Assembly (NCBI GenBank): GCA_016926755.1
Contig: JAFGNZ010000193.1
Span: 1 to 48,868, forward strand
Direction: 5' to 3'
Length of the DNA: 48,868 nucleotides
From: Myxococcaceae bacterium
Lineage (GTDB): Bacteria; Myxococcota; Myxococcia; Myxococcales; Myxococcaceae
Positions 12,693 to 48,868 of this stretch are shown piece by piece. The translations under genes were made by a program, and so were the position numbers. How positions within the stretch are numbered: the stretch's first letter is position 1; every line of letters starts with the position of its first letter. The notes beneath the pieces are model-generated. The model was given only the letters and a program-made list of their open reading frames with translations, had not been told where the DNA came from and searched no databases.

Positions 12693-12742
12693 GCCAGGGG
12701 TGAGCTGCTAGGGTTCCCCTGTCCGAGCGAGGGGAAACGCCG

Positions 12743-32532: not shown

Positions 32533-32553
32533 CACTTTCTCGGGAACCCTGCC

Positions 32554-33936: not shown

Positions 33937-33947
33937 GCCTGAAGCAC

Positions 33948-35483: not shown

Positions 35484-35506
35484 GATTGACCTCGGAGGCC
35501 CCCCTC

Positions 35507-38500
35507 ATGTCCCGACTGCTCGCTCGCGCGGCCCCTCTGCTTGCGTCCCTGATCCTGGCCTGTGGTGAAGAGGAGCCCGGTCCGCCTCTACAGCCCCCCG
35601 TGCTGGATCCCTGCGAGGGGTTGCAGCCGCTGACCCTCAAGGCAGAGCCCACCCGGCTGCGGGTGGCCGGCGCGGTGAACCTCACCGCCACGGGCGGCAG
35701 CGGGCACTACCGCTTCCGCCCCGAGCCGGGCGGCTCCAGCGGTGAGGTGCGCGGGGACCGCTTCATCGCGGGGCCCACGCCGGCCACGGACACGCTGGTG
35801 GTGGAGGACCTCCAGTGCCCGGGCTCCGCGCAGGCCACGGTGGAGGTGGTGGCTGCCTTCGACGTGGCGCCGGCGCGCGCGATGGTGCGCCCGGGCACCT
35901 CCTTCCAGGTGGCCACCGCGGGGCTGCTGGGCAGCGCCGAGTTCACCCTGGTGAGCAGCACGGCGGGCAGCACGCTCAGCAGCTCGGGCGTGTACACCGC
36001 GGGCACGGGCCAGGGCCTGGACCTGCTGCGGGTGCGCGATCTGCGGACGGGAGACGAGGCCCAGCTCGAGTACGAGGTGAGCGCCAGCGCGCGCCTGCGC
36101 GGCGAGCCCACGGCGGTGGCGCTGCCAGCCGGCTCCTCCATTCCGCTGGGGACCACGGGCGGCAGCGATCGGGTGACGTGGACGAAGTTGTCCGGCCCCG
36201 GCACCGTGCTGGCCGGGCGCTTCATGGCCGAGCCGGGCGCCAAGGGCCTGGCGGTGCTGGAGGCGGCGGATCCCTTCACCGGGGACAAGGCCCAGGTCTC
36301 CGTGCGCGTGCTGGACGAGCTGACGCGCCCCACTCAGCCCCATGGGCACATCACGGACGTGGCCACCGTCATCACCGCGGACTTTGACGGGGACGGCTTG
36401 CAGGACGTGGCGGTGGGGCGGCGCGAGAGCGATCTCTACCGGCCGCTCGGGGGCGCGGTGTTCATCTTCAAGGCCGGCGCCGCCGGCCTGTCCGCGCAGC
36501 CCACGTGGGTGCTGACCGGGCAGACGGATACGGCGGCCTTCGGTGACATGCTGGCGGCGGGCGATCTCGACAAGGACGGGAGGGCGGAGCTGGCGGTGGG
36601 CTCTCCCGGCGCGGACATCACGGGCGCCGACTCGGGCGCGGTGTACCTCTACCGCTGGGGCTCCAACGGGCCGGAGCTCATGCGCCCGCCGCTGACGAGC
36701 GTCGCCCGCGGCGGGGCCTTCAGCACGGGCCTGGCCATCGCGGACGTGGATGGGGATGGGGATCTGGATCTCATCGTCGGGGCGCCCACGGGGGACCTGG
36801 CGCCCTCGAGCGCGGTGAACCGCCGCGGCACGGTGGACATCTTCACCCTTACGCCGGGCCAGCCGATCCCGGATCTGCCGGCCATCCGCCTGGGAGGCTC
36901 GGATCTGTCGAGCACGGGCAGCCCCATGGCTCGCAGCAACACGGACCTGGGCCGGGCCGTGGTAGCGGCGGACCTCAACGGGGACGGGCTCGCGGACGTG
37001 GCGGCGTTGAGCAAGGTGTCACGGTACCTGCCGGACGGCACCACGCAGGCCACCGCGCTGGTGGCCGTGTCGGTGCACTTCGCGCGCGCCGAGGGGCTGC
37101 GCTTCCGAGCCACACCGGACGTGTACGTGCTGCCCAGGAATCTGGCGGATGGCACCGAGGGCACCTTCCGCCTCGACTTCGTTCCGGGCGAGGGGAGCCG
37201 GGCGCCGCTGCTGATGGTGCTGGTGGACCGGACGGACTCGCCGAGCGTCACGGGTGGTAACCCCGCGGCCGTGGATGCGGGCGGGGCGCTGCTCTTCGAT
37301 CTGACCGCCTACAAGCCCACGGGAGAGCCCTCGAGCACGCCTGTCCAACTCGCGCGCGATACGGCCTTCGCCCAGATCTACGGTGAGGCGAGGGACATCT
37401 GGGCCGGCCGGAGCTGGGCGGTGACGGATGTGGACGGGCAGCCCGGCCCCGAGCTGGTGCTGGGTGCGCCGAATGCCGCCGCGCCCGGCCCGAGCGGCAC
37501 GCTGCGCCTGGCGGGCCGGGTGCTGGCGTATCCGCTGGCGACGCTCGCCAGGGGCAGCATCATCAACAAGCCGCTGGCGGTGATCCACGGGCAGAACCGC
37601 TCGGACACCTTCGGCGTGGGGCTCGCTCCGTGGAGCGGGCCGGGCGGCGCGGGGCTGGTGGTCTTCTCCGGGCGCGCCTCCTCGGAGGCCGGCGCCTTCG
37701 TCGGCCGCCTGGAGTCCTTCACGCGGCTGGGCGCCTCCCTCACGGATTGGCCCCGGTCCATCAGCCTCGTGTCCGCGAAGCCGGCGGTGGAGCGCTTCGG
37801 CGAGGTGGTGGCGGCGGCGACGGGCGTGGGTGGCCGGGCGCTGGCGCTCGTGGGCTCCCCGGGCTACGCGGGGCCCGGCGGGTCGGCGGACGGGAACGAG
37901 TTCAACGCGGGCCGCGCGTGGGCCTACGACGTGACGCAGGGGACGGCGGGGGCCATGGTGGCGCAGGGGGCCGGCTCGCCGCTGGCTCGCGGGCGCACCG
38001 TGGGGACGGACGTGGCGTTCACGGACTTCAACGGGGATGGGCGCGCCGACCTGGTGATGGGCGCCTCGAGCTTCATCGTCCCGAGCGCTGGCCAGACGGC
38101 GGAGCTCGCCGCGTACGCCTCCACGAAGGCAGAGTGCATCACCACCACGGGCACCTCGAACGGACCGAACGTGGGCGGGCTGCTGGTGTCGCTCGGGCAG
38201 GCGGACGGCACCTTCAAGGAGGCCTACCGGCTGTGGGCGCCGCTGCAGATCCCGGGCTGCACGCCGGAGACGGAGACACGCTGTCGGCGCAGCCAGATCG
38301 GCCGCGGGGTGATTGGCGACTTCGACTTCAACGGCGACGGCCTGGAGGACATCGGCGCGCTGCGAAACAACGGCTTCGAGCTGTTCCTCGGGCACGCGCC
38401 GGAGGATGCCTCGCTGGCGAAGCTGACGATGGCGTGTGACTCCGTCTACTTCACCGAGGGCTCCTCGACGCGCCAGACGTCCGCGCCAGCGGCGCTGGGG

Positions 38501-39223
38501 GACCTGAACGCCGACGGCTGCGACGAGGTGGCCTGGCGCTACACGGAGACGAACCGCTCGGGCATCATCATCCTCTTTGGCCATGATCCGGGTGGCTCGC
38601 GCTGCAAGATGCAGACGACGCCGCGGTGGGTGCGGCTGGCGGGGGACGCTGAGGTGGGCGGCAACTTCCTGGGCCTGGGCGTGGCGACGGCGCGGGCGGG
38701 GAACTTCCTCAATGATGGGAAGGACCGGATCGCCATCAGCGCGACGGCGGTGCCCTTCGACGGGGTGACGCAGCCCGCGGTGCTGCTCTTCGACGCGGCG
38801 GAGCTGACGAGCGGCCTGCCGGGCTCGGGCGAGAAGCTGCGGGGTGCGCTGGGCGACGGGATGGAGCCCGTGACGCTGGTGCACCGCACGCGCGCGGTGA
38901 ACTTCGGGCGGGCGCTAGAGGGGGGCAGGGACCTGACGGGCGACAGCATCCCGGATCTGATCGTGAGCGCGCCGGGTGCCTCGGAGGCCTCCGACGGCGG
39001 GGGCGCGGTGTTCCTCTACGCGGGCGGCGCGAGCTCCACGGGGAGGTTGATGCCATGGCTCACCGTGATTGGCGATACCTCCGAGCGGTCCAACTTCGGG
39101 CAGGACCTCTCGCTCTCGCCGGGTGGTGCGGGCAGCCCGCCGACACTCGTCATCGGCGCGCCGACGAGCTACCGCACGGGCACGCAGAACGGCACGGCCT
39201 TCTCGCTGCCGCTCGGGTTCTGA
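35507..39223 (+). CDS. Large FG-GAP repeat (integrin-like propeller) lipoprotein
   Basis: A 1238-residue protein with a lipoprotein signal (LASLILAC, Cys19) and a CGGAGG-like ribosome-binding site. Residues of about 40-270 form Ig-like beta domains. From about 280 on there are at least eight FG-GAP-type repeats with calcium-loop motifs: DFDGDGLQD, DLDKDGRAE, DVDGDGDLD, DLNGDGLAD, DFNGDGRAD, DFNGDGLED, DLNADGCDE and DLTGDSIPD, several followed by VGAPTG-like turns. These build seven-bladed propellers used for binding partners or carbohydrates. It is the last gene of the DUF1501 cluster and probably the surface-exposed ligand-binding part. The ligand is unknown. Confidence 0.88.
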   Translation: MSRLLARAAPLLASLILACGEEEPGPPLQPPVLDPCEGLQPLTLKAEPTRLRVAGAVNLTATGGSGHYRFRPEPGGSSGEVRGDRFIAGPTPATDTLVVEDLQCPGSAQATVEVVAAFDVAPARAMVRPGTSFQVATAGLLGSAEFTLVSSTAGSTLSSSGVYTAGTGQGLDLLRVRDLRTGDEAQLEYEVSASARLRGEPTAVALPAGSSIPLGTTGGSDRVTWTKLSGPGTVLAGRFMAEPGAKGLAVLEAADPFTGDKAQVSVRVLDELTRPTQPHGHITDVATVITADFDGDGLQDVAVGRRESDLYRPLGGAVFIFKAGAAGLSAQPTWVLTGQTDTAAFGDMLAAGDLDKDGRAELAVGSPGADITGADSGAVYLYRWGSNGPELMRPPLTSVARGGAFSTGLAIADVDGDGDLDLIVGAPTGDLAPSSAVNRRGTVDIFTLTPGQPIPDLPAIRLGGSDLSSTGSPMARSNTDLGRAVVAADLNGDGLADVAALSKVSRYLPDGTTQATALVAVSVHFARAEGLRFRATPDVYVLPRNLADGTEGTFRLDFVPGEGSRAPLLMVLVDRTDSPSVTGGNPAAVDAGGALLFDLTAYKPTGEPSSTPVQLARDTAFAQIYGEARDIWAGRSWAVTDVDGQPGPELVLGAPNAAAPGPSGTLRLAGRVLAYPLATLARGSIINKPLAVIHGQNRSDTFGVGLAPWSGPGGAGLVVFSGRASSEAGAFVGRLESFTRLGASLTDWPRSISLVSAKPAVERFGEVVAAATGVGGRALALVGSPGYAGPGGSADGNEFNAGRAWAYDVTQGTAGAMVAQGAGSPLARGRTVGTDVAFTDFNGDGRADLVMGASSFIVPSAGQTAELAAYASTKAECITTTGTSNGPNVGGLLVSLGQADGTFKEAYRLWAPLQIPGCTPETETRCRRSQIGRGVIGDFDFNGDGLEDIGALRNNGFELFLGHAPEDASLAKLTMACDSVYFTEGSSTRQTSAPAALGDLNADGCDEVAWRYTETNRSGIIILFGHDPGGSRCKMQTTPRWVRLAGDAEVGGNFLGLGVATARAGNFLNDGKDRIAISATAVPFDGVTQPAVLLFDAAELTSGLPGSGEKLRGALGDGMEPVTLVHRTRAVNFGRALEGGRDLTGDSIPDLIVSAPGASEASDGGGAVFLYAGGASSTGRLMPWLTVIGDTSERSNFGQDLSLSPGGAGSPPTLVIGAPTSYRTGTQNGTAFSLPLGF

Positions 39224-39248
39224 GCAGTCACTGCCTCGCGCGAAGCTC

Positions 39249-39277
39249 CTGCGCAGCGACCCCGCTCATCTGCGCAG
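39249..39277. terminator. Possible hairpin at the convergent gene ends
   Basis: Two copies of the palindrome CTGCGCAG, 13 bases apart, can pair as a stem between the FG-GAP gene and the methyltransferase, partly inside the latter's 3' end. No T-run follows on either strand. Confidence 0.22.
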
Positions 39278-40297
39278 CAACAGCCGCTTCACCGCGTGCT
39301 TCACCGGCTTGGGGATGGAGGGGCCCACCACCCGGTTGAGCAACTCCAGCCCCTCTCCCCGCAGCGGCAGCGTGCCTCGGGCCATGTCCGCCAGCAGGTC
39401 TACGTACAGCGCCCACCGTGAATCCCCCCCTACCACGCGCGAGGCGGCCTCCACCCGGGCCCTGGCCTGTCCGACCCGGCGCAGCACGTAGAAGGCTCGC
39501 ACCGAGTGCGGCAGCCAGATGTCATGCACGGCGTGCAGCGCCTGCTCCAGCTCCGGGATGCGCTCCAGCCCGAGTTCCTTGAAGCGCGCCTCCCACCACT
39601 CGGTGTGCGCCCAGATGAGGTGCCCCGAGGCCGGAATGAGCGGCTCGGTCTTCTCGGCCAGCAGGTAGCGAAAGGGCTCGCGCTTCTCGAAGTCCCGTCG
39701 ATTCTCTTCGAACTCCAGCGGGAAGGGCTCGCCGAAGACGCGGTCCCAGCCAAACGCGGGCACCACGAAGAAGAGCAGGCCGTCCTCCCGTGCCACCGCC
39801 ACCGCCGCGCGCAGCGCGCCCTCCAGCTCACGCGGGTGCAGGTGCTCCCAGATGTCCAGCCCGCACACCGTGTCGAAGACGCGCCCACGCGCGGCCAGCG
39901 ATTCGCAGGTGGTCCGCAGATCGCCGAGCACCAGCCGGCCTTTCAGCTCCGGCCAGGCGCGTGCCTCGGCATCCGCGCTGAAGTCCACGCCGGTGACGTC
40001 TACGCCCCGGCGCTGAAGGAACCACAGCATGTCCCCGCGCCCGCACCCCACATCCAGCGCCGAGCGCCCGCCCAGCAGCCGAACCATCCGCGCGACCAGC
40101 CACAGGTGCGGAATCTTCCGTGCGTCGCGCTGGCCGCTGTGCGACTCGAAATACGCCGCGTCGTAGTACCCAGCCGAGAGGATGTTGTCGAGCAGGCTGT
40201 CGTAGTCCTCGAGGCGCTCCACCGCGATGAGCGTCGCCTCCTGCCCCTGGTTGAAGCCCCGGCCATCCGCCAGGTAATGCGTCCGAACCGTTCTCAC
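39266..40297 (-). CDS. Class I SAM-dependent methyltransferase
   Basis: About 343 residues. The SAM-binding motif I is SALDVGCGRGDML, followed by VTGVDFSADA (motif II acidic end) and FDTVCGLDIWEHLHP (motif IV region), then LLFFVVPAFGWDRVFGEP. This resembles methyltransferases found in surface-polysaccharide clusters, but the acceptor is unknown. The frame is open as far as a GTG at 40456, but GTG at 40297 has a GGAGG site six bases upstream and the longer form adds a low-complexity segment without one, so I use the shorter form. It converges on the FG-GAP gene. Confidence 0.85.
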   Translation of the reverse strand: MRTVRTHYLADGRGFNQGQEATLIAVERLEDYDSLLDNILSAGYYDAAYFESHSGQRDARKIPHLWLVARMVRLLGGRSALDVGCGRGDMLWFLQRRGVDVTGVDFSADAEARAWPELKGRLVLGDLRTTCESLAARGRVFDTVCGLDIWEHLHPRELEGALRAAVAVAREDGLLFFVVPAFGWDRVFGEPFPLEFEENRRDFEKREPFRYLLAEKTEPLIPASGHLIWAHTEWWEARFKELGLERIPELEQALHAVHDIWLPHSVRAFYVLRRVGQARARVEAASRVVGGDSRWALYVDLLADMARGTLPLRGEGLELLNRVVGPSIPKPVKHAVKRLLLRR

Positions 40298-40303
40298 CGC
40301 TGG

Positions 40304-40308
40304 CCTCC
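40304..40308 (-). promoter_or_regulatory. Ribosome-binding site deciding the methyltransferase start
   Basis: On the minus strand GGAGG is followed by six bases and then GTG at 40297. The alternative GTG at 40456 has no such site. Confidence 0.6.
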
Positions 40309-40501
40309 ACGACTCCCATGCTGGCAGAGGGGCACCAGTGTTACGAAGGAACTCCTCGGAGGGAAGAGGAAGCGCATAGCGCAGAGTGTGTCCGAGCGGG
40401 CTCGTGCCTGCCGGTTCGCTGGTTGGCTTCGCTCGAGTGCCAGACTGCTGGAGCACCGCAGCGCTGTTGAGGGAGCCCGCTTCCTCGCGCGGACGGGGGC
40501 C

Positions 40502-40808
40502 TCACAGCTTGTAGCCGAGCTTGCGCAGCAGCGCCTTGCGCTCGCGCACGTCATGCTCCTGCTCCACCCCGAGTGGCGGCTCGCCATCCACGACGCCCAG
40601 GATGCCGCGTCCCTGCTCCGTCCGGGCGATGATCACCTCGACGGGGTTGGAGGTGGCGCAGAAGATGCGGCACACCTCGGGGACCTGCTTGAGCGGAGTC
40701 AGCACGTTCAGAGCTCCGGACGAGCCGGGCCCCGGACGCCTCGCAGAAGGCCAGGCCGAACTCGAGATGAGGCGAGGTGCCCACAAGCGCCTCGTAGATG
40801 CTTGTGGG
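40502..40808 (-). pseudogene. Remnant of an adenosine-specific kinase family gene (PF04008)
   Basis: Two parts of one small conserved protein remain. The 5' part reads YEALVGTSPHLEFGLAFCEA followed by SGARLVR. At about 40715 the frame changes and the 3' part reads ALNVLTPLKQVPEVCRIFCA, TSNPVEVIIARTEQGRGILG and, at its end, RKALLRKLGYKL before a TGA. In intact members these are separated by a segment of roughly 35 residues that includes GAGHxFI; this is missing, as is the usual N-terminus. The gene is thus internally deleted, frameshifted and 5'-truncated, and its upstream side abuts the promoter region of the divergent lipoprotein gene. The family name is historical; the true role is unclear. 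The alignment is from memory. Confidence 0.75.
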
Positions 40809-40849
40809 CTATCATCGTGTCTCCACTTCTTCACGGGAGGAGCCCCCCC

Positions 40850-41614
40850 ATGCAAAGAGTCCTCGCTTTCCTCGTCGCGGTCTTCCTGGTCGGGTGCGGT
40901 GCGGAGGCGCCTGAGCTTCCACCCAAGGAGTCGATGACCATCGACTTCAAGAGCCTGGACAGCAGCAGCCAGGGCCTCCAGCCGGGCCAGCAGAGCGTCG
41001 ATCCGGGGGCCAGGACGCACTGGACCCAGGCGGCGCTGCGGGTGGGAATCCTCAACCTCTGGGTGGGCGTGGGCCTTGCCCCGCACGTGGCGGTGTTCCA
41101 CGCGGCGCACTCCCAGGCGGCCAAGGCCCAGGGTGATGAGTGGGTGTGGACCTACTCCGTCAAGAACGGCACGGTCGACGCCACCGCCACGCTCACGGCG
41201 CGCATGGATGGGAAGGCCTCGGTGTGGCAGATGCGCATCGACGGGAAGGTCGGCGCCGAGCAGCTCTCGGACTTCCTCTGGTACGAGGGGCGGTACGAGG
41301 TCTCCACCGGGTACTGGCAGCTCTACAACCTGGAGGGCAAGCACATCCGCATCGACTGGGAGCTCAACAGCCCGACCGACAAGGAGCTGAAGTTCACCGA
41401 CAACACGGGCGGCGCCGAGGACGGCAACTTCCTCACCTACAAGCTCGCCGGTGACCAGGCGAGCGTCTCCTACGACTTCAAGTCGAACAAGAAGGCCGAC
41501 ATCTCCTGGAGCGTCTCCAGCAAGGCGGGCTCCATCCTCGCGGCCGACTTCGCGGGGCACGAGAACCAGAAGGCGTGCTGGGACTCGCAGCTCTTCGACG
41601 TGCAGTGCCAGTAG
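40850..41614 (+). CDS. Lipoprotein of unknown function
   Basis: A 254-residue protein with a lipoprotein signal (FLVAVFLVGC, Cys16) and a strong GGGAGGAG ribosome-binding site. The mature part is rich in beta segments with alternating polar residues (EWVWTYSVKNGTVDATATLTARMDG, GKHIRIDWELNS, ASVSYDFKSNKKADISWSVSS), consistent with a beta-sandwich or lipocalin-like fold. Two cysteines near the end (KACWDSQLFDVQCQ) could form a disulfide. I recognise no family or catalytic motif. It is transcribed away from the adenosine-specific-kinase remnant. Confidence 0.75.
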   Translation: MQRVLAFLVAVFLVGCGAEAPELPPKESMTIDFKSLDSSSQGLQPGQQSVDPGARTHWTQAALRVGILNLWVGVGLAPHVAVFHAAHSQAAKAQGDEWVWTYSVKNGTVDATATLTARMDGKASVWQMRIDGKVGAEQLSDFLWYEGRYEVSTGYWQLYNLEGKHIRIDWELNSPTDKELKFTDNTGGAEDGNFLTYKLAGDQASVSYDFKSNKKADISWSVSSKAGSILAADFAGHENQKACWDSQLFDVQCQ

Positions 41615-41660
41615 GGCACGGCTGGAGGCCCCAGCTCGAGCGCGGTCTTCGAGTCCTCGC

Positions 41661-42302
41661 TCAGAACGCCCAGCCCACGCCGAGCGTCATGCGCGGAGAG
41701 AGAGACAACGTGCGCTGGTCAGGGAGGGCTCCCGACTGGAGCCCTCCCGAGAGCGTCCTCGCGCGAAAGTGCGTATTGCGGCCGCCGAGCACCGCGAGCC
41801 CCAGGCCCACCTGCACGGACAGGCCCGGGGCCAGGATGGCGGTATAGCCCGCGCGCACGCTTCCTCCGTACTGAAGCGTGCGCCAGCCCGACTCGAGCGG
41901 GACAAAACCTCCCTCCGGCGCCGAGACATCCGTCACCGTCGTGTGGTGGAGGACCGAGAGTTCGACGTGCGGCCCCACCCAGAAGCCCTCGGGCGCACGG
42001 CCTGCGACGTAGAAATGCACTCCCGGATCCACCCCAACGCTCCAGCGGTTCGTCGAGAACTCCGTTTCGAATTCGGCGTATTGACTGTCATCGAGGTACA
42101 CCGAGGCCTGCACCGTCCCCTGGAGCGCCAGGTGCGTGCCCACCGCGTGTTCCACGCTCGCGGCCACCGAGCCCGTAGAGCCATACACCGGTTGGGCCAG
42201 CACCAGCGTCCGCCGCTCCTCCTTCGGCTCGTCGGCCCGGCCCGTGCCCGGCGCCACCATCAGCACTCCCCCTGCGACAAGAATCCCCCAGTGCATCCGC
42301 AT
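41661..42302 (-). CDS. Outer-membrane beta-barrel protein
   Basis: A 213-residue protein with a signal peptide (ILVAGGVLMVAPGTGRA) and alternating hydrophobic/polar strands typical of small barrels (GSVAASVEHAVGTHLALQGTV, GFWVGPHVELSVLHH, YGGSVRAGYTAILAPGLSVQ). It ends in Phe (MTLGVGWAF), the usual recognition signal for BAM-dependent insertion. The start has a GGGAGG site six to eight bases upstream. The length is right for an eight- to ten-stranded barrel. Transport specificity is unknown. It is convergent with the preceding lipoprotein gene. Confidence 0.82.
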   Translation of the reverse strand: MRMHWGILVAGGVLMVAPGTGRADEPKEERRTLVLAQPVYGSTGSVAASVEHAVGTHLALQGTVQASVYLDDSQYAEFETEFSTNRWSVGVDPGVHFYVAGRAPEGFWVGPHVELSVLHHTTVTDVSAPEGGFVPLESGWRTLQYGGSVRAGYTAILAPGLSVQVGLGLAVLGGRNTHFRARTLSGGLQSGALPDQRTLSLSPRMTLGVGWAF

Positions 42303-42670
42303 CGTATTGCCTCCCTTTCGCCGGCCGGCCCACGGCCTGCCGCGGAGATTGCAGCGCGCATGCCACGCGGCGCCTCAGAGCGAGCGCGAAGGAACATCAG
42401 GGCCGGGACTGACAAATTGGCTCACGCTCCGCGAGAGCCCGCAGGACACTCTGTCCTCCGCCCAGGGCGGCGCGAGCCTGGTGGGTCCGCTGGATGGCCT
42501 CCGCGAAGGCCGGACGGGGCCAGATCGTCCGCAAGCTGTTCGAAAGGACATATCCCTCGCACCAGACTTGCGGGAGGCTCCTCTTGCGTGCTCGAGGGTG
42601 AGCGCGGTCACGCGGGCGTGTCCGGTGATCGGGCCGGCTGCGACACGCCTCTGCTGAAGGATGGTGGCCC
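42303..42670. other. Non-coding stretch upstream of the DoxX-like gene
   Basis: This 368-base interval separates the barrel gene from the divergent membrane gene. I find no convincing gene on either strand. It holds a short inverted repeat AGGACA-CTC-TGTCCT at 42443-42457 and no clear sigma-70 promoter. Both flanking promoters must lie here. Confidence 0.5.
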
Positions 42671-43177
42671 ATGAGAGGCCTTCGAGCCCTGTACGAAAGG
42701 ACGGATGCGCGTGTTGCGGGCTTCATGGCGCGCTACGGCATCGTCCTGTTGCGGATCAACCTTGGCATCGTGTTCTTCTGGTTTGGCGCGCTCAAGTTCT
42801 TCCCGGGACTGAGCCCGGCGCAGGACCTGGCCACGCGCACGATCCACGTGTTGACGCTAGGCCTCATGGCGCCGAGCGTGTCCATTCCCATTCTGGCGAC
42901 GTGGGAATGCTTGATAGGGCTTGGTTTGATCTTTGGCGTGTTCATGCGCGCCACGTTGCTGTTGCTGTTTCTGCAGATGCTGGGCACCGTCACGCCGATC
43001 TTCTTCTTCCCTGGCGAGATCTTCACGGCCATCCCGTACGGGCTCACCCTGGAAGGGCAGTACATCGTCAAGAACCTGGTGCTGATCAGTGCCGGCCTCG
43101 TGATCGGCGCCACGGTGCGAGGTGGCGCTTGGGTGGCCGAGCCGGAGAACGGCCTCGCGAGCGCATCCTCTCCGTAA
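42671..43177 (+). CDS. DoxX/DUF417-like inner-membrane protein
   Basis: A 168-residue protein with about four membrane helices. The segment [26 protein letters not shown], an Arg in the first helix followed by WxGxLKF-like residues, matches the DUF417/DoxX family, which includes RclC, linked to reactive-chlorine resistance. Later helices include [21 protein letters not shown] and a proline-containing loop [21 protein letters not shown]. Family members are thought to act in quinone or redox homeostasis; a link to the transhydrogenase operon downstream is possible, but that operon has its own promoter. Confidence 0.75.
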
Positions 43178-43183
43178 AGGACA

Positions 43184-43212
43184 TTGACGCAGCGCTTCTC
43201 TGTTGGGATAAT
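43184..43212 (+). promoter_or_regulatory. Sigma-70-type promoter of the pnt operon
   Basis: TTGACG at 43184-43189 and GATAAT at 43207-43212 are separated by 17 bases, within an A/T-rich patch unusual for this window, about 100 bases upstream of pntAA. The fit to the housekeeping consensus is good (5/6 and 5/6). Confidence 0.6.
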
Positions 43213-43317
43213 GACACCTATAGATTTTTCTTCTTGAGGCTCACTTGCAGGACTCGGGACGGCCGGTGGCCGCGGGCCCTGGTTGTCCACGGGCCGAAGA
43301 ACCAGCGCAGAGGAACG

Positions 43318-44454
43318 ATGAAGCTTGGGATCCCCAAGGAGACGGCGCCGCACGAGCGGCGTGTGGCGCTCGTCCCCGAGACCGTCAAGAAGCTCGCCAC
43401 GAAGAAGATCGAGGTGGTCGTCCAGAGCGGTGCGGGCGAGGCCTCGTCATTCCTCGATGAGGAGTACCGCGCCGCCGGCGCACAGATCGTGGGCTCGTTC
43501 GAGGAGGTCGCCGCGGCCGCCGACACGATCATCAAGGTGTGCCGGCCTTTCCCCGAGGAGCTCGCGAAGCTCGGGGACGGCGCCGCGCTCGTCACGCTGC
43601 TCTACGCGCTCTCGAGCGCGGACTACGTGAAGCAGCTCGCCTCGAAGCGACTCCTCTCCATCGCCCTCGAGCTCATCCCCCGGACCACGCTCGCGCAGGC
43701 GATGGACGTGCTCTCGTCGCAGGCCAGCCTGGCCGGATACTGGGCGGTGGTCGCCGCGGCAGCGCGGCTCCCGAAGATCTTCCCGATGCTCATGACCGCC
43801 GCCGGCACGATCACGCCCGCCCGGGTCCTCGTCATGGGCGCGGGCGTCGCCGGCCTCCAGGCGATCGGCACCGCCAAGCGCCTGGGCGCCGTGGTCGAGG
43901 CCACCGACGTCCGCCCCGAGACAAAGGAGCAGGTCGAGTCCCTCGGCGGCAGGTTCCTGCAGGTGCAGGGCGTCGAGCTCAAGCAGGGCACGGGCGGCTA
44001 CGCGGCCGAGCAGAGCGAGGAGTACAAGCGGAAGCAGGCCGAGCTGATCTCGAGCGCCATCTCGAGGGCGGACGTCGTGATCACCACCGCCCTCATCCCT
44101 GGCCGGAGGGCGCCGATCCTGGTGACTGGCGCGCAGGTCCAGTCGATGCGCCCCGGCTCGGTGATCGTGGATCTGGCGGCGGAGCAGGGCGGGAACGTGG
44201 AGGGTTGCGTCCCGGGCGAGGACGCCGTCCGCCAGGGCGTGACGATCATCGGCCCGGTGAGCGCGCCCAGCCGGGTGGCGTTCCATGCGAGCCAGGCCTT
44301 CTCTCGCAACATCGAGAAGCTCTTGCTCCACGTCACGGCCGACGGGCGCTGGAACCTGGACCTGGACAAGGACGAGATCGCGAAGGGATGCGTGGTGACC
44401 CGGGAAGGGCTGATCGTGCATCCCAAGCTCAAGGAAGCGGCGGAGGCGAAGTAA
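43318..44454 (+). CDS. pntAA: NAD(P) transhydrogenase alpha subunit, part 1 (NAD-binding domain I)
   Basis: A 378-residue soluble NAD(H)-binding component of proton-translocating transhydrogenase. It starts MKLGIPKETAPHERRVALVP, as in the alanine dehydrogenase/PNT family, and has the nucleotide-binding VLVMGAGVAGLQAIGTAKRL with an acidic end to the next strand (EATDVRPE). The length and the stop before any membrane helix show the three-subunit form typical of Rhodospirillum-type enzymes. It passes hydride between NADH and NADP+ together with PntB, driven by the proton gradient. A ribosome-binding site AGAGG precedes the ATG. Its stop overlaps the next start as TAATG. Confidence 0.96.
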   Translation: MKLGIPKETAPHERRVALVPETVKKLATKKIEVVVQSGAGEASSFLDEEYRAAGAQIVGSFEEVAAAADTIIKVCRPFPEELAKLGDGAALVTLLYALSSADYVKQLASKRLLSIALELIPRTTLAQAMDVLSSQASLAGYWAVVAAAARLPKIFPMLMTAAGTITPARVLVMGAGVAGLQAIGTAKRLGAVVEATDVRPETKEQVESLGGRFLQVQGVELKQGTGGYAAEQSEEYKRKQAELISSAISRADVVITTALIPGRRAPILVTGAQVQSMRPGSVIVDLAAEQGGNVEGCVPGEDAVRQGVTIIGPVSAPSRVAFHASQAFSRNIEKLLLHVTADGRWNLDLDKDEIAKGCVVTREGLIVHPKLKEAAEAK

Positions 44455-44753
44455 TGGACCTCGATACCCTGCTGTTCGGGCTCTACATCTTCATGCTGGC
44501 GGCCTTCCTGGGCTACCAGGTGATCTCGAAGGTGCCCCAGCTCCTGCACACGCCGCTCATGGCGTTCACGAATGCGATCTCGGGCATCTCGCTCGTCGCG
44601 TCGCTGGTCATCGCGGGGGCTGACTGGGGGCTCGTGACGAACCTGCTGGGCGCCATCGCCGTGACGGCGGCGACCATCAACGTGGTCGGCGGCTTCCTCA
44701 TCACGGATCGCATGCTCAAGATGTTCAAGAAGAAGAAGGACGCTACCCCGTGA
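44454..44753 (+). CDS. pntAB: NAD(P) transhydrogenase alpha subunit, part 2 (membrane domain)
   Basis: A 99-residue membrane component with three to four helices: LLFGLYIFMLAAFLGYQVIS, LMAFTNAISGISLVASLVIAG and LLGAIAVTAATINVVGGFLI, followed by the conserved ITDRMLKMFKKK tail. LLHTPLMAFTNAISG is a signature of this subunit. It forms part of the proton channel with the N-terminal half of PntB. The ATG shares one base with the preceding stop, and its own stop lies inside the pntB start (GTGA), so the three subunits are tightly coupled in translation. Confidence 0.96.
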   Translation: MDLDTLLFGLYIFMLAAFLGYQVISKVPQLLHTPLMAFTNAISGISLVASLVIAGADWGLVTNLLGAIAVTAATINVVGGFLITDRMLKMFKKKKDATP

Positions 44754-46195
44754 ACGGCCTCCTCTCCCTCGTGCAGACGTACGCGGCTGACGCCAGCCAC
44801 GGCTGGGACGCGCGGACCCTGATCTACCGCCTCGCGCTGCTCGCGGCGTCGTTCCTGTTCCTCCTCGGCCTGCGCGGCCTGTCGAACCCCGAGACCGCCC
44901 GCCGCGGTATGACTCAGGCGGCCGTGGGCATGCTGCTCGGCGTCCTCGGGACGCTCGTCCAGCGCGACATCGTCCACTACCACTGGATCATCGGTGGCCT
45001 CGTGCTCGGCACGATCATCGGCGCGCCGATGGGCCTGTGGATCCCGATGACGAAGATGCCGGAGCGGATCGCGCTCTCGCACGCGTTCGGTGGCCTGGCC
45101 GTGGCGCTCGTCGGCGTGGCCGAGTACCTGCACCGCGGCGCCCAGCTGAGCAGCTTCAGCATCGGCGCCGTCACCTTCGAAGTGCTGATGGGCTCCATCA
45201 CGTTCACCGGCTCGCTCATGGCGTTCGGCAAGCTCCAGGGCTTCCTGCCCGGCAAGCCGACGACCTTCCCTGGCCAGAACGCGCTCAACTTCATCTTCCT
45301 GAGCGGGTGCCTGGCCGGGCTCGTCGGCCTGATCGTCAAGCCCGAGCTCGCGCCGCTCTTCTATGGGCTCGTCGCGGCGGGGACGCTGCTGGGCATCCTG
45401 CTCGTGCTGCCCATCGGCGGGGCGGACATGCCCGTCGTCATCTGCCTGCTCAACTCCTATGCGGGCCTGGCGGCGGCGGCCTCCGGCTTCGCGCTCGACA
45501 ACAACGTCCTCATCATCTGCGGCGCGCTCGACGGCGGCTCGGGCTTCATCCTGGCCATGATCATGTCGAAGGCGATGAACCGCTCGTTCTCGAACGTGCT
45601 CTTCGGCGCGTTCGGCAGCGACGCCACGGCCCTGGCGGCAGGCCCCGACAAGGGCGGGAACGTCCGCGAGGGCACGATCGAGGACGCGGCGGAGCTCCTC
45701 AAGATCGCCAGCTCGGTCATCATCGTCCCGGGCTACGGCATGGCTGTCGGTCAGGCGCAGCACGCCACGCGCGATCTGGCCAACGCGCTCGCCGCGAACG
45801 GGACCCGCGTCAAGTACGCCATCCATCCGGTGGCCGGCCGCATGCCAGGCCACATGAACGTCCTCCTCGCGGAGGCGAACGTCTCGTACGACCAGCTCTT
45901 CGAGCTCGAGGCGATCAACGACGAGTTCCCGCAGACGGACGTGTCAATCGTGGTCGGGGCGAACGACGTGGTGAACCCGGCGGCGAAGACCGCGCCAGGG
46001 AGCCCGATCTTCGGCATGCCCATCCTCAACGTCGATCAGTCCAAGGCCGTGATCGTGCTCAAGCGCTCCATGGGCAAGGGCTTCGCGGGGATCGAGAACG
46101 AGCTCTTCGTGCTGCCACAGACCATGATGGTGTTCGGTGACGCGAAGGTGACGCTGGGCAGGATCACCCAGACGATGAAGGGCGGAGGGCACTGA
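44750..46195 (+). CDS. pntB: NAD(P) transhydrogenase beta subunit
   Basis: A 481-residue subunit. The first 270 residues are membrane helices with the conserved GAPMGLWIPMTKMPE and GGADMPVVICLLNSYAGLAAA segments. The remainder is the soluble NADP(H)-binding domain, with VPGYGMAVGQAQHATRDLA (Rossmann glycine motif), RMPGHMNVLLAEANVSYDQL, VVGANDVVNPAAKT and KRSMGKGFAGIENELF. All are typical and intact. GTG start overlaps the pntAB stop by four bases. With PntAA and PntAB it makes NADPH at the expense of the proton gradient. Confidence 0.97.
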   Translation: MNGLLSLVQTYAADASHGWDARTLIYRLALLAASFLFLLGLRGLSNPETARRGMTQAAVGMLLGVLGTLVQRDIVHYHWIIGGLVLGTIIGAPMGLWIPMTKMPERIALSHAFGGLAVALVGVAEYLHRGAQLSSFSIGAVTFEVLMGSITFTGSLMAFGKLQGFLPGKPTTFPGQNALNFIFLSGCLAGLVGLIVKPELAPLFYGLVAAGTLLGILLVLPIGGADMPVVICLLNSYAGLAAAASGFALDNNVLIICGALDGGSGFILAMIMSKAMNRSFSNVLFGAFGSDATALAAGPDKGGNVREGTIEDAAELLKIASSVIIVPGYGMAVGQAQHATRDLANALAANGTRVKYAIHPVAGRMPGHMNVLLAEANVSYDQLFELEAINDEFPQTDVSIVVGANDVVNPAAKTAPGSPIFGMPILNVDQSKAVIVLKRSMGKGFAGIENELFVLPQTMMVFGDAKVTLGRITQTMKGGGH

Positions 46196-46228
46196 GCGCC
46201 TTCCCTCTGCCTCGGCCTTCGGCTGCTC

Positions 46229-46248
46229 GGGCCTGCGAAGGCAGGCCC
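46229..46248. terminator. Hairpin between convergent pntB and the UGSC-operon end
   Basis: GGGCCTGC-GAAG-GCAGGCCC forms a perfect 8-bp stem with a four-base loop in the 71-base gap between two convergent genes. No T-run follows, but position and stability suggest a bidirectional stop. Confidence 0.45.
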
Positions 46249-46266
46249 ACCATGAACTCGCCTGCC

Positions 46267-47355
46267 TCAGAGCTGGCAGATGCTGGCCTGCAGCTCGATC
46301 GCGCGCGTCTGGCTGAAGCCGACGGCGAACGTCGGGATCCAGCACGAGTGCTTGCCCGCCCCGCCCGCGACCAGCACGCGAAGGTGCGACGGCTCGCGAG
46401 CCAGGGGGATGCGCCGGCCCCAGGCCTCGAGTCGCTCCGCGTAGCCCCCCCATGACGTGAGCTCCTCGAGCTTCTGCTCGGAGATGCGCTCGACGGGGAC
46501 GCGCGCGTGCTCGTAGAGGTAGCGCGCCACGTCCTCGCGCGAGAAACCCGAGGCCGCGACGGCCTCGGCGTGCTCGGGGCCGAAGACGACGAAATGGTCG
46601 CCGCCGACGTACAGGTTGTTGCTGCCGACGGTGGCCATGGTCTGCGCGATCGTATTGAGGATCGACTCGCCGTCGCTCGAGAGGTGGTCGTTGATGTTGT
46701 GCGGGCCCTCGGCCGCTGCGACCGTCACGCATGAATCCTCGACGCCGAGGCCGAGCGTGGTGCGCAGCGGCGGCCATGGGCTCTCGGCCTCGTTCTCGGC
46801 GAAGCAGAAGCCGTACTTCGCCGGGCCGCCCTGCGTGGCCTTGTCGGTGGTGCCGGGGATCGCGCCGCCGATGTTCTGCAGGACGAGGCGAAGCGCACGG
46901 CCGATGCTGGCGTTGGCGCGCGTGCCCGGCCCCATGCAGCCGTGCCCCGCGTTGAGCCCCAGCTGCGCGACGACGGGCCCCTGCACGATGCAGAGCAGCG
47001 CGCAGGGATGCGTCGTGGTCTGCATGCCGAACAGGTTGAACTCGGGATCCTGGATGGCGGTGATCGCGGCCTCGAGCACGGGCATGTGCTCTGGGAGGCA
47101 GCCGGCCATGACGGCGTTGATCGCGATCTTCTGGATGGTGGCGGCGCCCTCGCGCGGCGCGAGGTTGCCGAGGCTCTCGAGCGGGTAGTGCTTCGCGCCC
47201 GCACACATTCGCGCGACGCGCTCACGGGTCGGGATCACCACAGGGAGCCCGTCCGTGAAGCCCCATGCATGGAAGCGCTCGAGCGCGGCGGCCTCATCAC
47301 CGTCGATCTCGAGCTCGAGCTGTTCGGCTGTGGGGGCCGCCTCCGCTGCGCTCAT
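46267..47355 (-). CDS. Conserved protein of unknown function, partner of the UGSC selenoprotein
   Basis: A 362-residue protein without a signal peptide or membrane helices. Distinct segments are FTDGLPVVIPTRERV, CLPEHMPVLEAAI, QTTTHPCALLCIVQGP, NAGHGCMGPGTRANASIGRA, KYGFCFAENEAESPWPPL, CVTVAAAEGPHNINDH and GKHSCWIPTFAVGFS. Several cysteines and histidines in conserved-looking contexts suggest a metal or thiol active site, but I do not recognise a named family. Its ATG overlaps the TGA stop of the upstream UGSC gene (ATGA), so the two are made together and probably form one enzyme or pathway step. The operon is divergent from MarR and an acyl-CoA dehydrogenase, hinting at catabolism. Confidence 0.8.
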   Translation of the reverse strand: MSAAEAAPTAEQLELEIDGDEAAALERFHAWGFTDGLPVVIPTRERVARMCAGAKHYPLESLGNLAPREGAATIQKIAINAVMAGCLPEHMPVLEAAITAIQDPEFNLFGMQTTTHPCALLCIVQGPVVAQLGLNAGHGCMGPGTRANASIGRALRLVLQNIGGAIPGTTDKATQGGPAKYGFCFAENEAESPWPPLRTTLGLGVEDSCVTVAAAEGPHNINDHLSSDGESILNTIAQTMATVGSNNLYVGGDHFVVFGPEHAEAVAASGFSREDVARYLYEHARVPVERISEQKLEELTSWGGYAERLEAWGRRIPLAREPSHLRVLVAGGAGKHSCWIPTFAVGFSQTRAIELQASICQL

Positions 47356-47888
47356 GCGCCACCTTCCTTCTGCAGGCCCGCGGCGACTGCTGCGATCACC
47401 TCGTCGGTGATCCGCGCCTCGGCCTCCGCGCGCGAGATGCCGCCGACCGGGTGGCGCACGACGGCGAGCGGCAGCGCCTTCGCGTTGCGCTGGCCGAGCA
47501 GCTCGCGGGCGAAGCCCTCGAACGACTGCGTGACGAGGCCGACCACCGCCCGGCCCCTGCGTGCCAATTCAATCTGGTCGTGGACACTCCACGACGTGCA
47601 TGAGCCTCAATCGAGCGCCGCGAGCACGACGGCGTCGCAAGCGTCCCGGCACTGGTCGAGCAGCTCCGCGCCTGCCTCGAGGGAGGGGATCTCCTTCGTG
47701 AAGAAGAGCGGCACGATGCCGAAGCGCGCCTCGAGCTCCGTCGCGGTCCGCCGCAGCAGGACATCGGCGTTGGGCTTGTTGTTGCTGAAGAAGCCGACCC
47801 GCGCCCCGCGCAGGCTGTCCAGACGGATTCCCAGCGCCTCGGGCGGGGGCGGCGCGCTCGTGGGGTTGAGGGCGATGGTGCGAGTCAT
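47352..47888 (-). CDS. UGSC-family selenoprotein with in-frame TGA (Sec94)
   Basis: Read through one TGA (47607-47609), this gene encodes 178 residues. The first 93 include RVGFFSNNKPNADVLLRR and CDAVVLAALD, typical of the UGSC family. The TGA then takes the place of U in U-G-S-C-T-S-W-S-V-H-D, and the frame continues ELARRGRAVVGLVTQSFEGF to AVVRHPVGG and a normal TGA. UGSC proteins are known in Sec and Cys forms. A perfect hairpin just after the TGA fits a bacterial SECIS. Standard gene callers would report two fragments (47607-47888 and 47352-47567). The ATG has AGGAG upstream. The function of the family is unknown; a redox-active Sec is inferred. A nonsense mutation of a Cys form is the alternative. 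Confidence 0.83.
47577..47595 (-). promoter_or_regulatory. Candidate bacterial SECIS hairpin
   Basis: On the minus strand GTCGTGGA-GTG-TCCACGAC makes a perfect 8-bp stem with a three-base loop. The stem begins 11 bases and the loop 19 bases after the in-frame TGA; the loop starts with G. Known bacterial SECIS elements put the apical loop about 16-37 bases downstream with a G in its first two positions. The hairpin uses the uncommon codon AGT, as if constrained. Confidence 0.75.
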
Positions 47889-47914
47889 CGAGCTGTCTCC
47901 TGTGGGTCGGCTCA

Positions 47915-47935
47915 ATACTACGAGTTGCGTACTAT
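47915..47935. promoter_or_regulatory. Palindromic operator candidate for MarR
   Basis: ATACTACG-AGTTG-CGTACTAT has arms matching at seven of eight positions and is rich in A/T, like MarR operators. It covers the -10 of the minus-strand promoter and the -35 of the plus-strand promoter, so one repressor could shut both. Confidence 0.55.
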
Positions 47936-47942
47936 ACCACAA
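47915..47942 (-). promoter_or_regulatory. Promoter of the UGSC operon
   Basis: On the minus strand TTGTGG (47942-47937) and TAGTAT (47920-47915) are 16 bases apart, 27 bases before the start codon of the selenoprotein gene. Confidence 0.45.
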
Positions 47943-47951
47943 ACATATAAT
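47925..47951 (+). promoter_or_regulatory. Promoter of the marR-acyl-CoA dehydrogenase operon
   Basis: A perfect TATAAT at 47946-47951 is preceded by TTGCGT at 47925-47930 with a 15-base spacer. It lies 47 bases before the MarR start and overlaps the palindrome. Confidence 0.5.
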
Positions 47952-47998
47952 ACGGGAGCCATACCGACGCGGACAGTGTCGGAACCACGAAGACGACG

Positions 47999-48439
47999 AT
48001 GGGAAAGAACTACCGAGCCGACGAGAGCCACGGGCGCGCCGTGATGACGCTCATCCACCGCATCACCGCGCGCGGTGCGAAGCGGCCCACGCTGGAGCTC
48101 AACGTGCGACACCGCCTCGTGCTGCAGGCGCTGGGGCTCGAGGGACCTCGGTCGATCGCGGCGATCGGTCAGCAGCTGGGGCTCACACCGTCGACGATGA
48201 CCGGCATCGTCGACCGCCTCGAGGACCTCGGCCTCCTGCGTCGCGAGCGCGATTCGAGCGATCGCCGCGCGACCTTGCTGCACCTGACGCGCAAGGGCCA
48301 GGTCGCGTTCAAACGGGAAGTGGACTTCTACTGCGCCATTCTCGATGGGTTGCTCGAAGCAACGGAAGACACGGCGAGGCCGCTCGTGCTCGAAGTGGTC
48401 ACCCACCTCGGCCGCGCGAAGAGCGCGGTCGCAGCCTAG
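47999..48439 (+). CDS. MarR-family transcriptional regulator
   Basis: A 146-residue regulator. The winged helix-turn-helix is clear: RSIAAIGQQLGLTPSTMTGIVDRLEDLGLLRRERDSSDRRATLLHLT, with the DxRR wing motif typical of MarR. Flanking N- and C-terminal helices would form the dimer interface. MarR proteins repress neighbouring genes and release DNA on binding small aromatic or acyl ligands or on oxidation. A palindrome in the divergent promoter is a likely operator, suggesting that it controls itself, the acyl-CoA dehydrogenase and the UGSC operon. The ribosome-binding site is weak. Confidence 0.92.
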   Translation: MGKNYRADESHGRAVMTLIHRITARGAKRPTLELNVRHRLVLQALGLEGPRSIAAIGQQLGLTPSTMTGIVDRLEDLGLLRRERDSSDRRATLLHLTRKGQVAFKREVDFYCAILDGLLEATEDTARPLVLEVVTHLGRAKSAVAA

Positions 48440-48448
48440 GAGGACGAG

Positions 48449-48868
48449 ATGGACTTCCAGCTCAGCGAGGAGCAGCAGCTCCTGCAGCGCACGGTGCGCG
48501 ATTTCGCCGACCGGGAATGCAAGGAGCTCGCAGCCCGATGGGACCGCGAGGGAGAGATCCCCGACCACGCGATCGTCGACAAGCTGGTGGGCCTCGGTCT
48601 CATCGGCATGTGCCTGCCCGTGAAGTACGGCGGCGGCGGGCAGGAGCTCCTCTCCGCCATCCTGTGCATCGAACAGCTCGCCCGGATCTCACCGCTGTGC
48701 GCCGCCGCGGTGTTCGAGAGCAACGTCGGGCCGGTGCGCGTCATCGAGCTCTTCGGGACCGAGGCGCAGAAGGAGCGCCTGCTCCCGAGGGTCTGCAAGG
48801 GCCAGATGCAGATCAGCGTCGGCATGACCGAGGCCGAGGCCGGCAGCGCGCTCACCGATCTACGCACC
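48449..48868 (+). CDS. Acyl-CoA dehydrogenase (3' partial)
   Basis: The first 140 residues of an acyl-CoA dehydrogenase, cut by the window end. MDFQLSEEQQLLQRTVRDFADREC is the typical start; LGLIGMCLPVKYGGGG and the FAD/substrate-binding beginning of the middle domain QISVGMTEAEAGS (usual form xxALTEPxAGS) are visible. These flavoenzymes form the alpha-beta double bond of an acyl-CoA in fatty- or aromatic-acid breakdown. The start has TAGGAGG seven bases upstream and lies nine bases after marR, so the two are co-transcribed. The catalytic Glu is beyond the window. Confidence 0.94.
   Translation, partial: MDFQLSEEQQLLQRTVRDFADRECKELAARWDREGEIPDHAIVDKLVGLGLIGMCLPVKYGGGGQELLSAILCIEQLARISPLCAAAVFESNVGPVRVIELFGTEAQKERLLPRVCKGQMQISVGMTEAEAGSALTDLRT

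What the first reader, a model, noticed from the sequence alone, without database searches (positions are those of the whole stretch)
47352..47888. A hidden selenoprotein: UGSC-family gene with TGA read as selenocysteine
Two minus-strand fragments in the same frame are separated by one TGA, and joining them gives a full-length UGSC-family protein with the TGA exactly at the U of U-G-S-C. Homology to the family continues on both sides of the codon. The UGSC family is known from selenoproteome surveys but its function is not known; it is unexpected in this kind of myxobacterium and would be split by routine annotation.
Basis: partly seen in the sequence, partly recalled or inferred. Interest (0 to 1): 0.9.

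Follow-up and report, generated by a model that had tools for sequence, protein, structure and literature searches.

The report
Hidden selenoprotein with a constant partner
A gene that looks broken by a stop codon is really a selenium-containing protein of the little-understood UGSC family, and it probably works with the gene beside it as a two-part enzyme that cuts chemical bonds the way proline reductase does.

Summary
Confirmed. Window 47355-47888 (-) encodes a full-length UGSC-family protein (Pfam PF24696, 115.7 bits, cut-off 25) if one TGA (47607-47609) is read as selenocysteine. At that codon 24 loci (window included) have TGA (9), Cys (13) or Met (2). A bacterial-SECIS hairpin follows the TGA in 7 of 7 aligned TGA sequences. 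The genome holds selA, selB, selC (anticodon TCA) and a TGA-containing selD. Contamination is unlikely: the contig is syntenic with all six held genus mates up to ~39.2 kb; UGSC lies in accessory DNA beyond.

New beyond the finding:
(1) A 362-aa neighbour without a Pfam family (46267-47355) is its partner: beside UGSC in 15 of 15 loci, in the same 3 of 195 genomes, fused to UGSC-like domains in five plasmid records.
(2) The UGSC profile is remotely homologous to PrdB, the selenoprotein subunit of D-proline reductase, Sec aligned with Sec (hhalign 92%, E 6.5e-7). It does not match thioredoxin.
(3) Thioredoxin-reductase-like genes lie near the pair in 10 of 25 neighbourhoods (one of them the query's own), in 0 of 65 mostly shorter control loci.

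Best model: a Sec-nucleophile, thioredoxin-system-fed reductase of a carbon-heteroatom bond; substrate unknown.

The parts
47355..47888 (-). UGSC-family selenoprotein gene, 178 aa with Sec94 (stop codon 47352-47354)
   Evidence: Pfam PF24696 115.7 bits across the TGA; homologues with TGA or Cys at the codon
47607..47609 (-). TGA codon read as selenocysteine (U of U-G-S-C)
   Evidence: TGA in 9, Cys in 13 and Met in 2 of 24 loci; Sec machinery
47577..47595 (-). bacterial SECIS hairpin, 8 bp with a GUG apical loop, 19 nt between TGA and loop
   Evidence: same hairpin in 7 of 7 distinct TGA-type sequences; meets the published bSECIS model (PMC13188914); energy -15.0 kcal/mol for the 42 nt after the TGA
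46267..47355 (-). partner protein, 362 aa, ATGA overlap with UGSC, no Pfam family
   Evidence: adjacent in 15 of 15 UGSC loci; same 3 of 195 genomes; fused to UGSC-like domains elsewhere
47889..47998 (.). shared intergenic region with a conserved GCAA..CGTAGTA box, perhaps MarR operator and promoter
   Evidence: conserved against L022 and L023; function inferred
47999..48439 (+). divergent MarR-family regulator
   Evidence: Pfam MarR; conserved at this place in L022 and L023 at about 62% identity
48449..48868 (+). acyl-CoA dehydrogenase, N-terminal part, cut by the contig end
   Evidence: Pfam Acyl-CoA_dh_N; order acyl-CoA dehydrogenase - MarR - UGSC - partner kept in L022 and L023
39244..48868 (.). 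accessory segment carrying the system
   Evidence: window 30000-48868 aligns to all 6 held genus mates only up to about 39.20-39.24 kb; beyond it only short pnt matches elsewhere in two of them

Best explanation
The locus encodes a two-component selenoenzyme. UGSC (178 aa, predicted flavodoxin-like alternating beta-alpha fold) carries Sec94 just after a central strand, with Cys97 next to it. The 362-aa partner is the larger, probably substrate-binding subunit. By homology with PrdB of D-proline reductase, the Sec94 selenolate attacks a carbon bearing a heteroatom (C-N most likely, other C-X possible) of a substrate held by the partner. The resulting selenoether is resolved by a cysteine (Cys97 is the obvious candidate) to give a Se-S bridge. 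NADPH, thioredoxin reductase and thioredoxin then restore the selenol. The cell uses it in the catabolism of an organic acid or amino-acid-like compound, controlled by the divergent MarR regulator. Shown by computation: the Sec gene, SECIS, machinery, partnership and sequence homology to PrdB. Inferred: the chemistry, the electron donor, the role of the partner, the control and the substrate class.
For: Sec gene; machinery; SECIS. Partnership: 15 of 15 loci, the same 3 of 195 genomes, fusions in 5 records. PrdB homology: hhalign of A8 (22 UGSC-like, 21 used by the program) against A7 (13 PrdB-family, 5 from Bacillota of which 4 are annotated prdB) gives 92.0%, E 6.5e-7, score 50.3, Sec on Sec. 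A near-identical pair of profiles built in the script scores 46.8, against 22.8 for the best of 200 column shuffles. With UxxC masked in the smaller PrdB profile the same region still aligns at 32.0 (36.1 unmasked), the motif then one residue out. Two PrdB-like proteins score 35.8 and 34.5, above all of 216 ORFs of the same genome (best 27.5). Thioredoxin reductase: trxB-like gene in 10 of 25 UGSC/partner neighbourhoods, the query's own Arthrobacter locus included; 0 of 65 control loci. Orders: trxB-trxA-partner-UGSC in Arthrobacter, partner-UGSC-trxB in Roseovarius, trxB near the pair in Variovorax SRS16. Proposed PrdB mechanism: PMC3091704, passages.
Against: No Pfam PF07355 (GrdB/PrdB) hit for any of 13 UGSC members at E 10; the similarity covers only about residues 74-175. 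Scored singly, the other six of eight PrdB-like proteins give 13.5-24.2, no better than the top control ORFs. Rossmann-like folds resemble one another. One member hits TIGR01917 (glycine reductase selenoprotein B, E 0.009), but two chance-looking hits in the same scan are stronger. The partner shows no similarity to a 3-sequence PrdA profile, so a pyruvoyl mechanism is not supported. The window, L022, L023, L024 and L025 show no trxB in the stretches held, which are short for L024 and L025. Two of the trxB loci are related Paracoccus plasmids with the gene about 6 kb away. Two distant fused members have Met in place of Sec/Cys, and one partner locus has no UGSC (L085). No substrate is indicated.
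Confidence: 0.6

Rival explanations
1. UGSC is a thioredoxin-like thiol or peroxide oxidoreductase, as surmised in the 2008 survey, and the neighbour is its redox client.
For: U-x-x-C motif; published surmise of a Trx-like fold (PMC2398784, passages); thioredoxin reductase neighbours fit any thiol enzyme.
Against: Predicted topology is b-a-b-a-b-[UGSC]-a-b-a-b with Sec after the third of these strands, unlike Trx; hhalign against one TrxA 0.6% versus 92% against PrdB. The model is only of medium confidence (pLDDT 73, three sequences).
Confidence: 0.2
2. UGSC plus partner is a non-redox enzyme (for instance a lyase or isomerase) in which Sec or Cys acts as covalent nucleophile without net reduction.
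For: Met replaces Sec/Cys in the fused Sporomusa and Vibrio proteins; lyases and CoA transferases occur among the neighbours.
Against: Thioredoxin-reductase neighbours; the Met forms are distant and their loci have no trxB hit; Sec is costly and mostly used for redox or nucleophilic reduction (general knowledge).
Confidence: 0.15
3. The TGA is a real stop, sequencing error or decay, leaving two meaningless fragments.
For: Nothing beyond the stop codon itself. The folding energy after the TGA is not exceptional for the window sequence (380 of 1000 synonymous shuffles as low).
Against: Same codon is TGA in eight further loci and Cys in thirteen; SECIS core kept in 7 of 7; full machinery present; partner gene intact and conserved.
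Confidence: 0.02
4. The contig is a contaminant, so the gene does not belong to this organism.
For: Assembly contamination 3.67%; UGSC absent from 6 genus mates; the window's pnt operon is only 66-70% identical to the copies on own contig C203 and in two genus mates.
Against: Window 8358-15268 is 81-87% identical to all 6 genus mates, 30000 to 39.2 kb 76-81%, tetranucleotide correlation 0.89 with other contigs. The segment is accessory DNA in a native contig.
Confidence: 0.03

Closest known systems
UGSC-containing selenoprotein family (Pfam PF24696, NCBIfam NF041046; GOS selenoproteome, PMC2398784)
   Same: Motif, Sec at the same place, Pfam match over cut-off; fusion with a conserved domain ('Unknown_1') was already noted in 2008, probably the partner described here (not checked, supplement not seen).
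   Different: Below the NCBIfam equivalog cut-off (98.4 against 125); previously 'likely Trx-like fold', here predicted flavodoxin-like and related to PrdB; partner shown as a near-constant companion.
PrdB, selenoprotein subunit of D-proline reductase (PF07355 family)
   Same: Remote homology over about 90 residues with Sec aligned to Sec and UxxC retained; second subunit encoded beside it.
   Different: No PF07355 hit; no PrdA, PrdC or proline racemase gene recognised at the locus; partner unrelated to PrdA by hhalign; occurs in haloarchaea and in Proteobacteria such as Variovorax and Paracoccus.
GrdB of glycine reductase, and the GrdB-like fluoroacetate operon (PMC10838667, abstract)
   Same: Selenol chemistry fed by thioredoxin reductase and thioredoxin (PMC3091704 passages); the fluoroacetate case suggests that this superfamily can take other C-X bonds.
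   Different: Only one weak direct hit of one UGSC member to the GrdB model; GrdA and GrdE genes were not searched for.

Membership tests
Bacterial selenoprotein | In-frame TGA at a position where homologues have Cys or Sec | tested here: met
   24 loci: 9 TGA, 13 Cys, 2 Met
[quoted passage not shown]
   8 bp, loop GUG (or A-GUG-U), 19 nt, -15.0 kcal/mol; model from PMC13188914. Chance level: 327 of 7665 TGAs in stretches of the same genome have a hairpin of 8 bp or more at that place
Bacterial selenoprotein | selA, selB, selC, selD in the genome | tested here: met
UGSC family, Pfam PF24696 | score over gathering cut-off 25 | tested here: met
   115.7 bits
UGSC family, NCBIfam NF041046 equivalog | score over cut-off 125 | tested here: not met
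   98.4 bits: same family in the wide sense, outside the narrow equivalog
D-proline reductase PrdB | homology to PrdB with aligned Sec | tested here: met
   hhalign 92.0%, E 6.5e-7; remote, C-terminal half only
D-proline reductase PrdB | PF07355 match | tested here: not met
   no hit at E 10 for 13 members; none in the own genome at E 0.001
D-proline reductase PrdB | PrdA-type pyruvoyl partner | tested here: not met
   partner against a 3-sequence PrdA profile 0.1%
D-proline reductase PrdB | reduces D-proline | not testable with these tools
   needs an assay
Thioredoxin-fold oxidoreductase | thioredoxin fold or sequence relation | tested here: inconclusive
   hhalign against one TrxA 0.6%; AF2 topology differs, pLDDT 73; best VIA-align rows are receiver and Rossmann-like domains

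The most novel reading that the evidence does not exclude
UGSC and its uncharacterised partner form a further branch, beside glycine and proline reductases, of selenocysteine-nucleophile reductases that break carbon-heteroatom bonds. It is built on a PrdB-like Sec domain but with a new type of substrate subunit, fed by thioredoxin reductase, and spread on plasmids and accessory DNA among bacteria and haloarchaea. [quoted passage not shown]
Probability: 0.45. Interest if true: 0.75.

Novelty: new member of a known kind. Interest (0 to 1): 0.55.

Why it matters
UGSC was the fifth largest selenoprotein family by count in the GOS survey (255 sequences, Table 2 of PMC2398784). A 2026 review still counts it among selenoproteins whose biological functions remain largely uncharacterised (PMC13188914, passages). 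A near-constant partner, a thioredoxin-reductase link and homology to PrdB make its function directly testable. It also shows how such genes vanish in annotation: the Paracoccus ferrooxidans copy is listed as two hypothetical proteins and the Acidovorax copy ends at the TGA.

Tried and rejected
Viral contigs: no UGSC or partner relative confirmed and no SECIS-core match; phage records: none. PDB sequence relatives of UGSC, its profile, the partner and its profile: nothing below E 0.1; for one PrdB-like protein, nothing below E 0.3. Foldseek found only generic matches with low TM-scores. VIA-align ranks receiver, periplasmic-binding and PurE-like folds (Z about 9-11): this fixes the class of fold, not the function; no PrdB or Trx row was among the 50 shown. 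The partner model failed (pLDDT 32, three sequences) and was not searched. The hypothesis that the partner is a PrdA relative was tested and dropped. Contamination was considered and rejected. L026 (22.9 bits, under cut-off; no UGSC or partner hit by tblastn) was dropped as spurious.

Results against my reading: the MFE after the TGA is not unusual under synonymous shuffling for the window (380 of 1000 as low), although only 45 of 1000 reach an 8-bp stem in place; Cys-type genes L028 and L031 also have stems of 7 and 9 bp. Covariation is thin: 6 of 8 pairs never vary, one has a two-sided change in 2 sequences, and 29 of 500 shuffles reach the score. Stronger is the rare Ser codon AGT inside the hairpin: 7 of 7 TGA sequences use it, against 9 of 183 other Ser codons in their UGSC and partner genes; the 2 Cys-type genes of that table with Ser there use AGC and TCC. 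Only two of eight PrdB-like single sequences beat the control ORFs. One partner locus, L085, has no UGSC in its 15 kb. The trxB query came from one of the counted loci, and 49 of the 65 control loci are under 14 kb while most neighbourhoods are 13-17 kb, although the total length of control is larger (497 kb against 398 kb). The homologue sets lean on plasmids, because the other collections gave few.

Literature: UGSC together with PrdB is in 3 papers, 'UGSC family' with thioredoxin reductase in none, selenoprotein with myxobacteria in 2 that look unrelated by title. In the passages I read, none links UGSC to PrdB or GrdB; the held library is open-access only. Papers: passages of PMC2398784, PMC13188914, PMC9312934, PMC5029168, PMC3091704, PMC1088965, PMC1794560; abstract and outline of PMC10838667; all others in search listings only. 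The likeness to the GrdB/PrdB motif was first recalled from memory and then tested.

Full report
Observation. The minus-strand frame 47888-47352 gives 178 residues with one internal TGA at 47607-47609, residue 94, reading U-G-S-C. The protein matches Pfam UGSC over residues 17-172, both sides of the TGA, at 115.7 bits. The NCBIfam equivalog is matched below its cut-off (98.4 of 125). It is the only UGSC match in the genome.

Homologues. I collected UGSC loci from genome contigs (2), the same phylum (2 besides the own one over cut-off; a fourth, L026, under cut-off and dropped), plasmids (10 records) and, through the partner gene, 9 more plasmid records. With the window that is 24 loci: 9 have TGA at the codon, 13 have Cys and 2 have Met. 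C94 G95 S96 C97 S99 D104 G112 F123 are among the invariant residues of the first 13 aligned (Sec written as C). In the wider set of 22, C94, G95 and C97 are at 90% or more.

Selenocysteine. The genome has selA, selB, selC with anticodon TCA, and a selD that itself has an in-frame TGA; that TGA too is followed by an 8-bp hairpin. After the UGSC TGA an 8-bp hairpin with a GUG apical loop is present in 7 of 7 distinct TGA-type sequences (two near-identical Paracoccus copies were left out of that alignment). It meets the four criteria given for bacterial SECIS elements (PMC13188914). Hairpins of 8 bp or more at that place follow 4.3% of TGAs in stretches of this genome (327 of 7665). The nucleotide core is kept in proteins only 27-38% identical to the window's, including the rare Ser codon AGT in 7 of 7 (9 of 183 elsewhere in their UGSC and partner genes). 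One stem pair changes on both sides in two sequences. Energy alone is not exceptional.

Belonging. The window is native: 8358-15268 is 81-87% identical to all 6 held genus mates, and composition agrees. Synteny with all six ends at 39.20-39.24 kb. The last 9.6 kb, with a second pnt operon, UGSC, partner, MarR and acyl-CoA dehydrogenase, is accessory. UGSC over cut-off and partner occur in the same 3 of 195 genomes of the phylum, own genome included, while selB is over cut-off in 137 of 195.

The partner. A 362-aa gene overlaps UGSC by ATGA. Relatives lie next to or fused with UGSC in 15 of 15 loci and are more conserved than UGSC (81-83% against 70-71% to L022 and L023). In plasmids, all 10 UGSC records are among the 24 partner records. 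Of the other 14 I opened 10 (the four left are Neorhizobium records), and 9 have an adjacent or fused UGSC-like protein. The tenth, Haladaptatus L085, has none in its 15 kb. Fusions: Acidovorax (Sec), Variovorax boronicumulans and Neorhizobium (Cys; the Neorhizobium gene is broken), Sporomusa and Vibrio (Met). The 2008 survey saw a UGSC fusion with a domain 'Unknown_1', probably this one. No Pfam, NCBIfam or PDB relative over a cut-off was found.

Relation to proline reductase. Profile comparison of UGSC with the PrdB family gives 51.7% and E 1.5e-4 with the small sets, and 92.0% and E 6.5e-7 with 22 UGSC-like and 13 PrdB-family sequences (the program kept 21 of 22). Sec is aligned to Sec, followed by the same helix, 'GIP' strand and C-terminal region. 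The PrdB set has 5 sequences from Bacillota, of which Peptoclostridium, Terrisporobacter, Enterococcus and Ligilactobacillus are annotated prdB and Acetoanaerobium lies in a record without annotation there. Controls: for script-built profiles of nearly the same sequences the score is 46.8, and 200 column shuffles reach at most 22.8. Among 216 ORFs of the same genome the best scores 27.5, against 35.8 and 34.5 for two PrdB-like proteins; the other six of the eight score 13.5-24.2. TrxA gives 0.6% and PrdA against partner 0.1%. The AF2 model (pLDDT 73, pTM 0.75, three sequences) is a flavodoxin-like beta-alpha sandwich with Sec after the third of its alternating strands; its nearest solved structures by VIA-align are receiver and Rossmann-like domains.

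Neighbours. A trxB-like gene lies in 10 of 25 neighbourhoods, including the Arthrobacter locus that gave the query and two related Paracoccus plasmids, and in none of 65 control loci, 497 kb (controls come mostly from one phylum and are mostly shorter). Arthrobacter has trxB-trxA-partner-UGSC. On the Paracoccus ferrooxidans plasmid selA and selB flank UGSC within about 8 kb. Other recurrent neighbours, where annotated, are CoA transferases, TRAP or tripartite tricarboxylate transporters, GMC oxidoreductases and acyl-CoA enzymes, which suggest organic-acid catabolism. In the two closest relatives the order acyl-CoA dehydrogenase, MarR, UGSC, partner is kept.

Mechanism. For D-proline reductase, selenolate attack of PrdB on the alpha-carbon, a selenoether and its resolution by a cysteine have been proposed, and glycine reductase uses thioredoxin reductase and thioredoxin (PMC3091704, passages). 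A GrdB-like operon is linked to C-F cleavage (PMC10838667, abstract). I transfer this to UGSC by homology: Sec94 attacks, Cys97 resolves, the thioredoxin system regenerates, the partner binds the substrate. This is inference. The gene is a member of a known family; the assignment is the new part.

Noticed in passing
L009 1531 (G000 C263): selD of the same genome has an in-frame TGA followed by an 8-bp hairpin, so SelD is itself a likely selenoprotein.
   Followed up: partly
L037-L058 (PF07355 hits in the phylum): Short PrdB-like proteins with an in-frame TGA: of 22 loci I could frame 13, and 12 of these have TGA at the UxxC, one has Cys; 14 of 195 genomes are over the cut-off. Easily missed by routine annotation.
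   Followed up: partly
L082 6314-8038, L086 6365-8050: Fused UGSC-partner proteins of Sporomusa and Vibrio plasmids have Met (DMGTS) where others have Sec or Cys; both lie near aconitase X and DUF126 genes.
   Followed up: no
L035 1-14679 (Paracoccus pFER4): selA and selB on the same plasmid within about 8 kb of the UGSC gene: a possible mobile Sec cassette.
   Followed up: no
L029, L031, L088, L089: Haloarchaeal plasmids carry two partner paralogues flanking one UGSC gene, possibly a heteromeric larger subunit.
   Followed up: no
window 42661-46195: A second pntAB-like operon, 66-70% identical in aligned pieces to the copy on contig C203, sits in the accessory segment facing UGSC; no pnt match to the window was found in the L022 and L023 loci.
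   Followed up: partly
window 18697-24561 and 35357-39220: Large RHS-repeat protein and an FG-GAP repeat protein with a sub-threshold TcdB_toxin_midN match.
   Followed up: no
G000 C1 (L080): A 6.9-kb contig of the assembly has outlying tetranucleotide composition (mean correlation 0.43), a possible contaminant.
   Followed up: no
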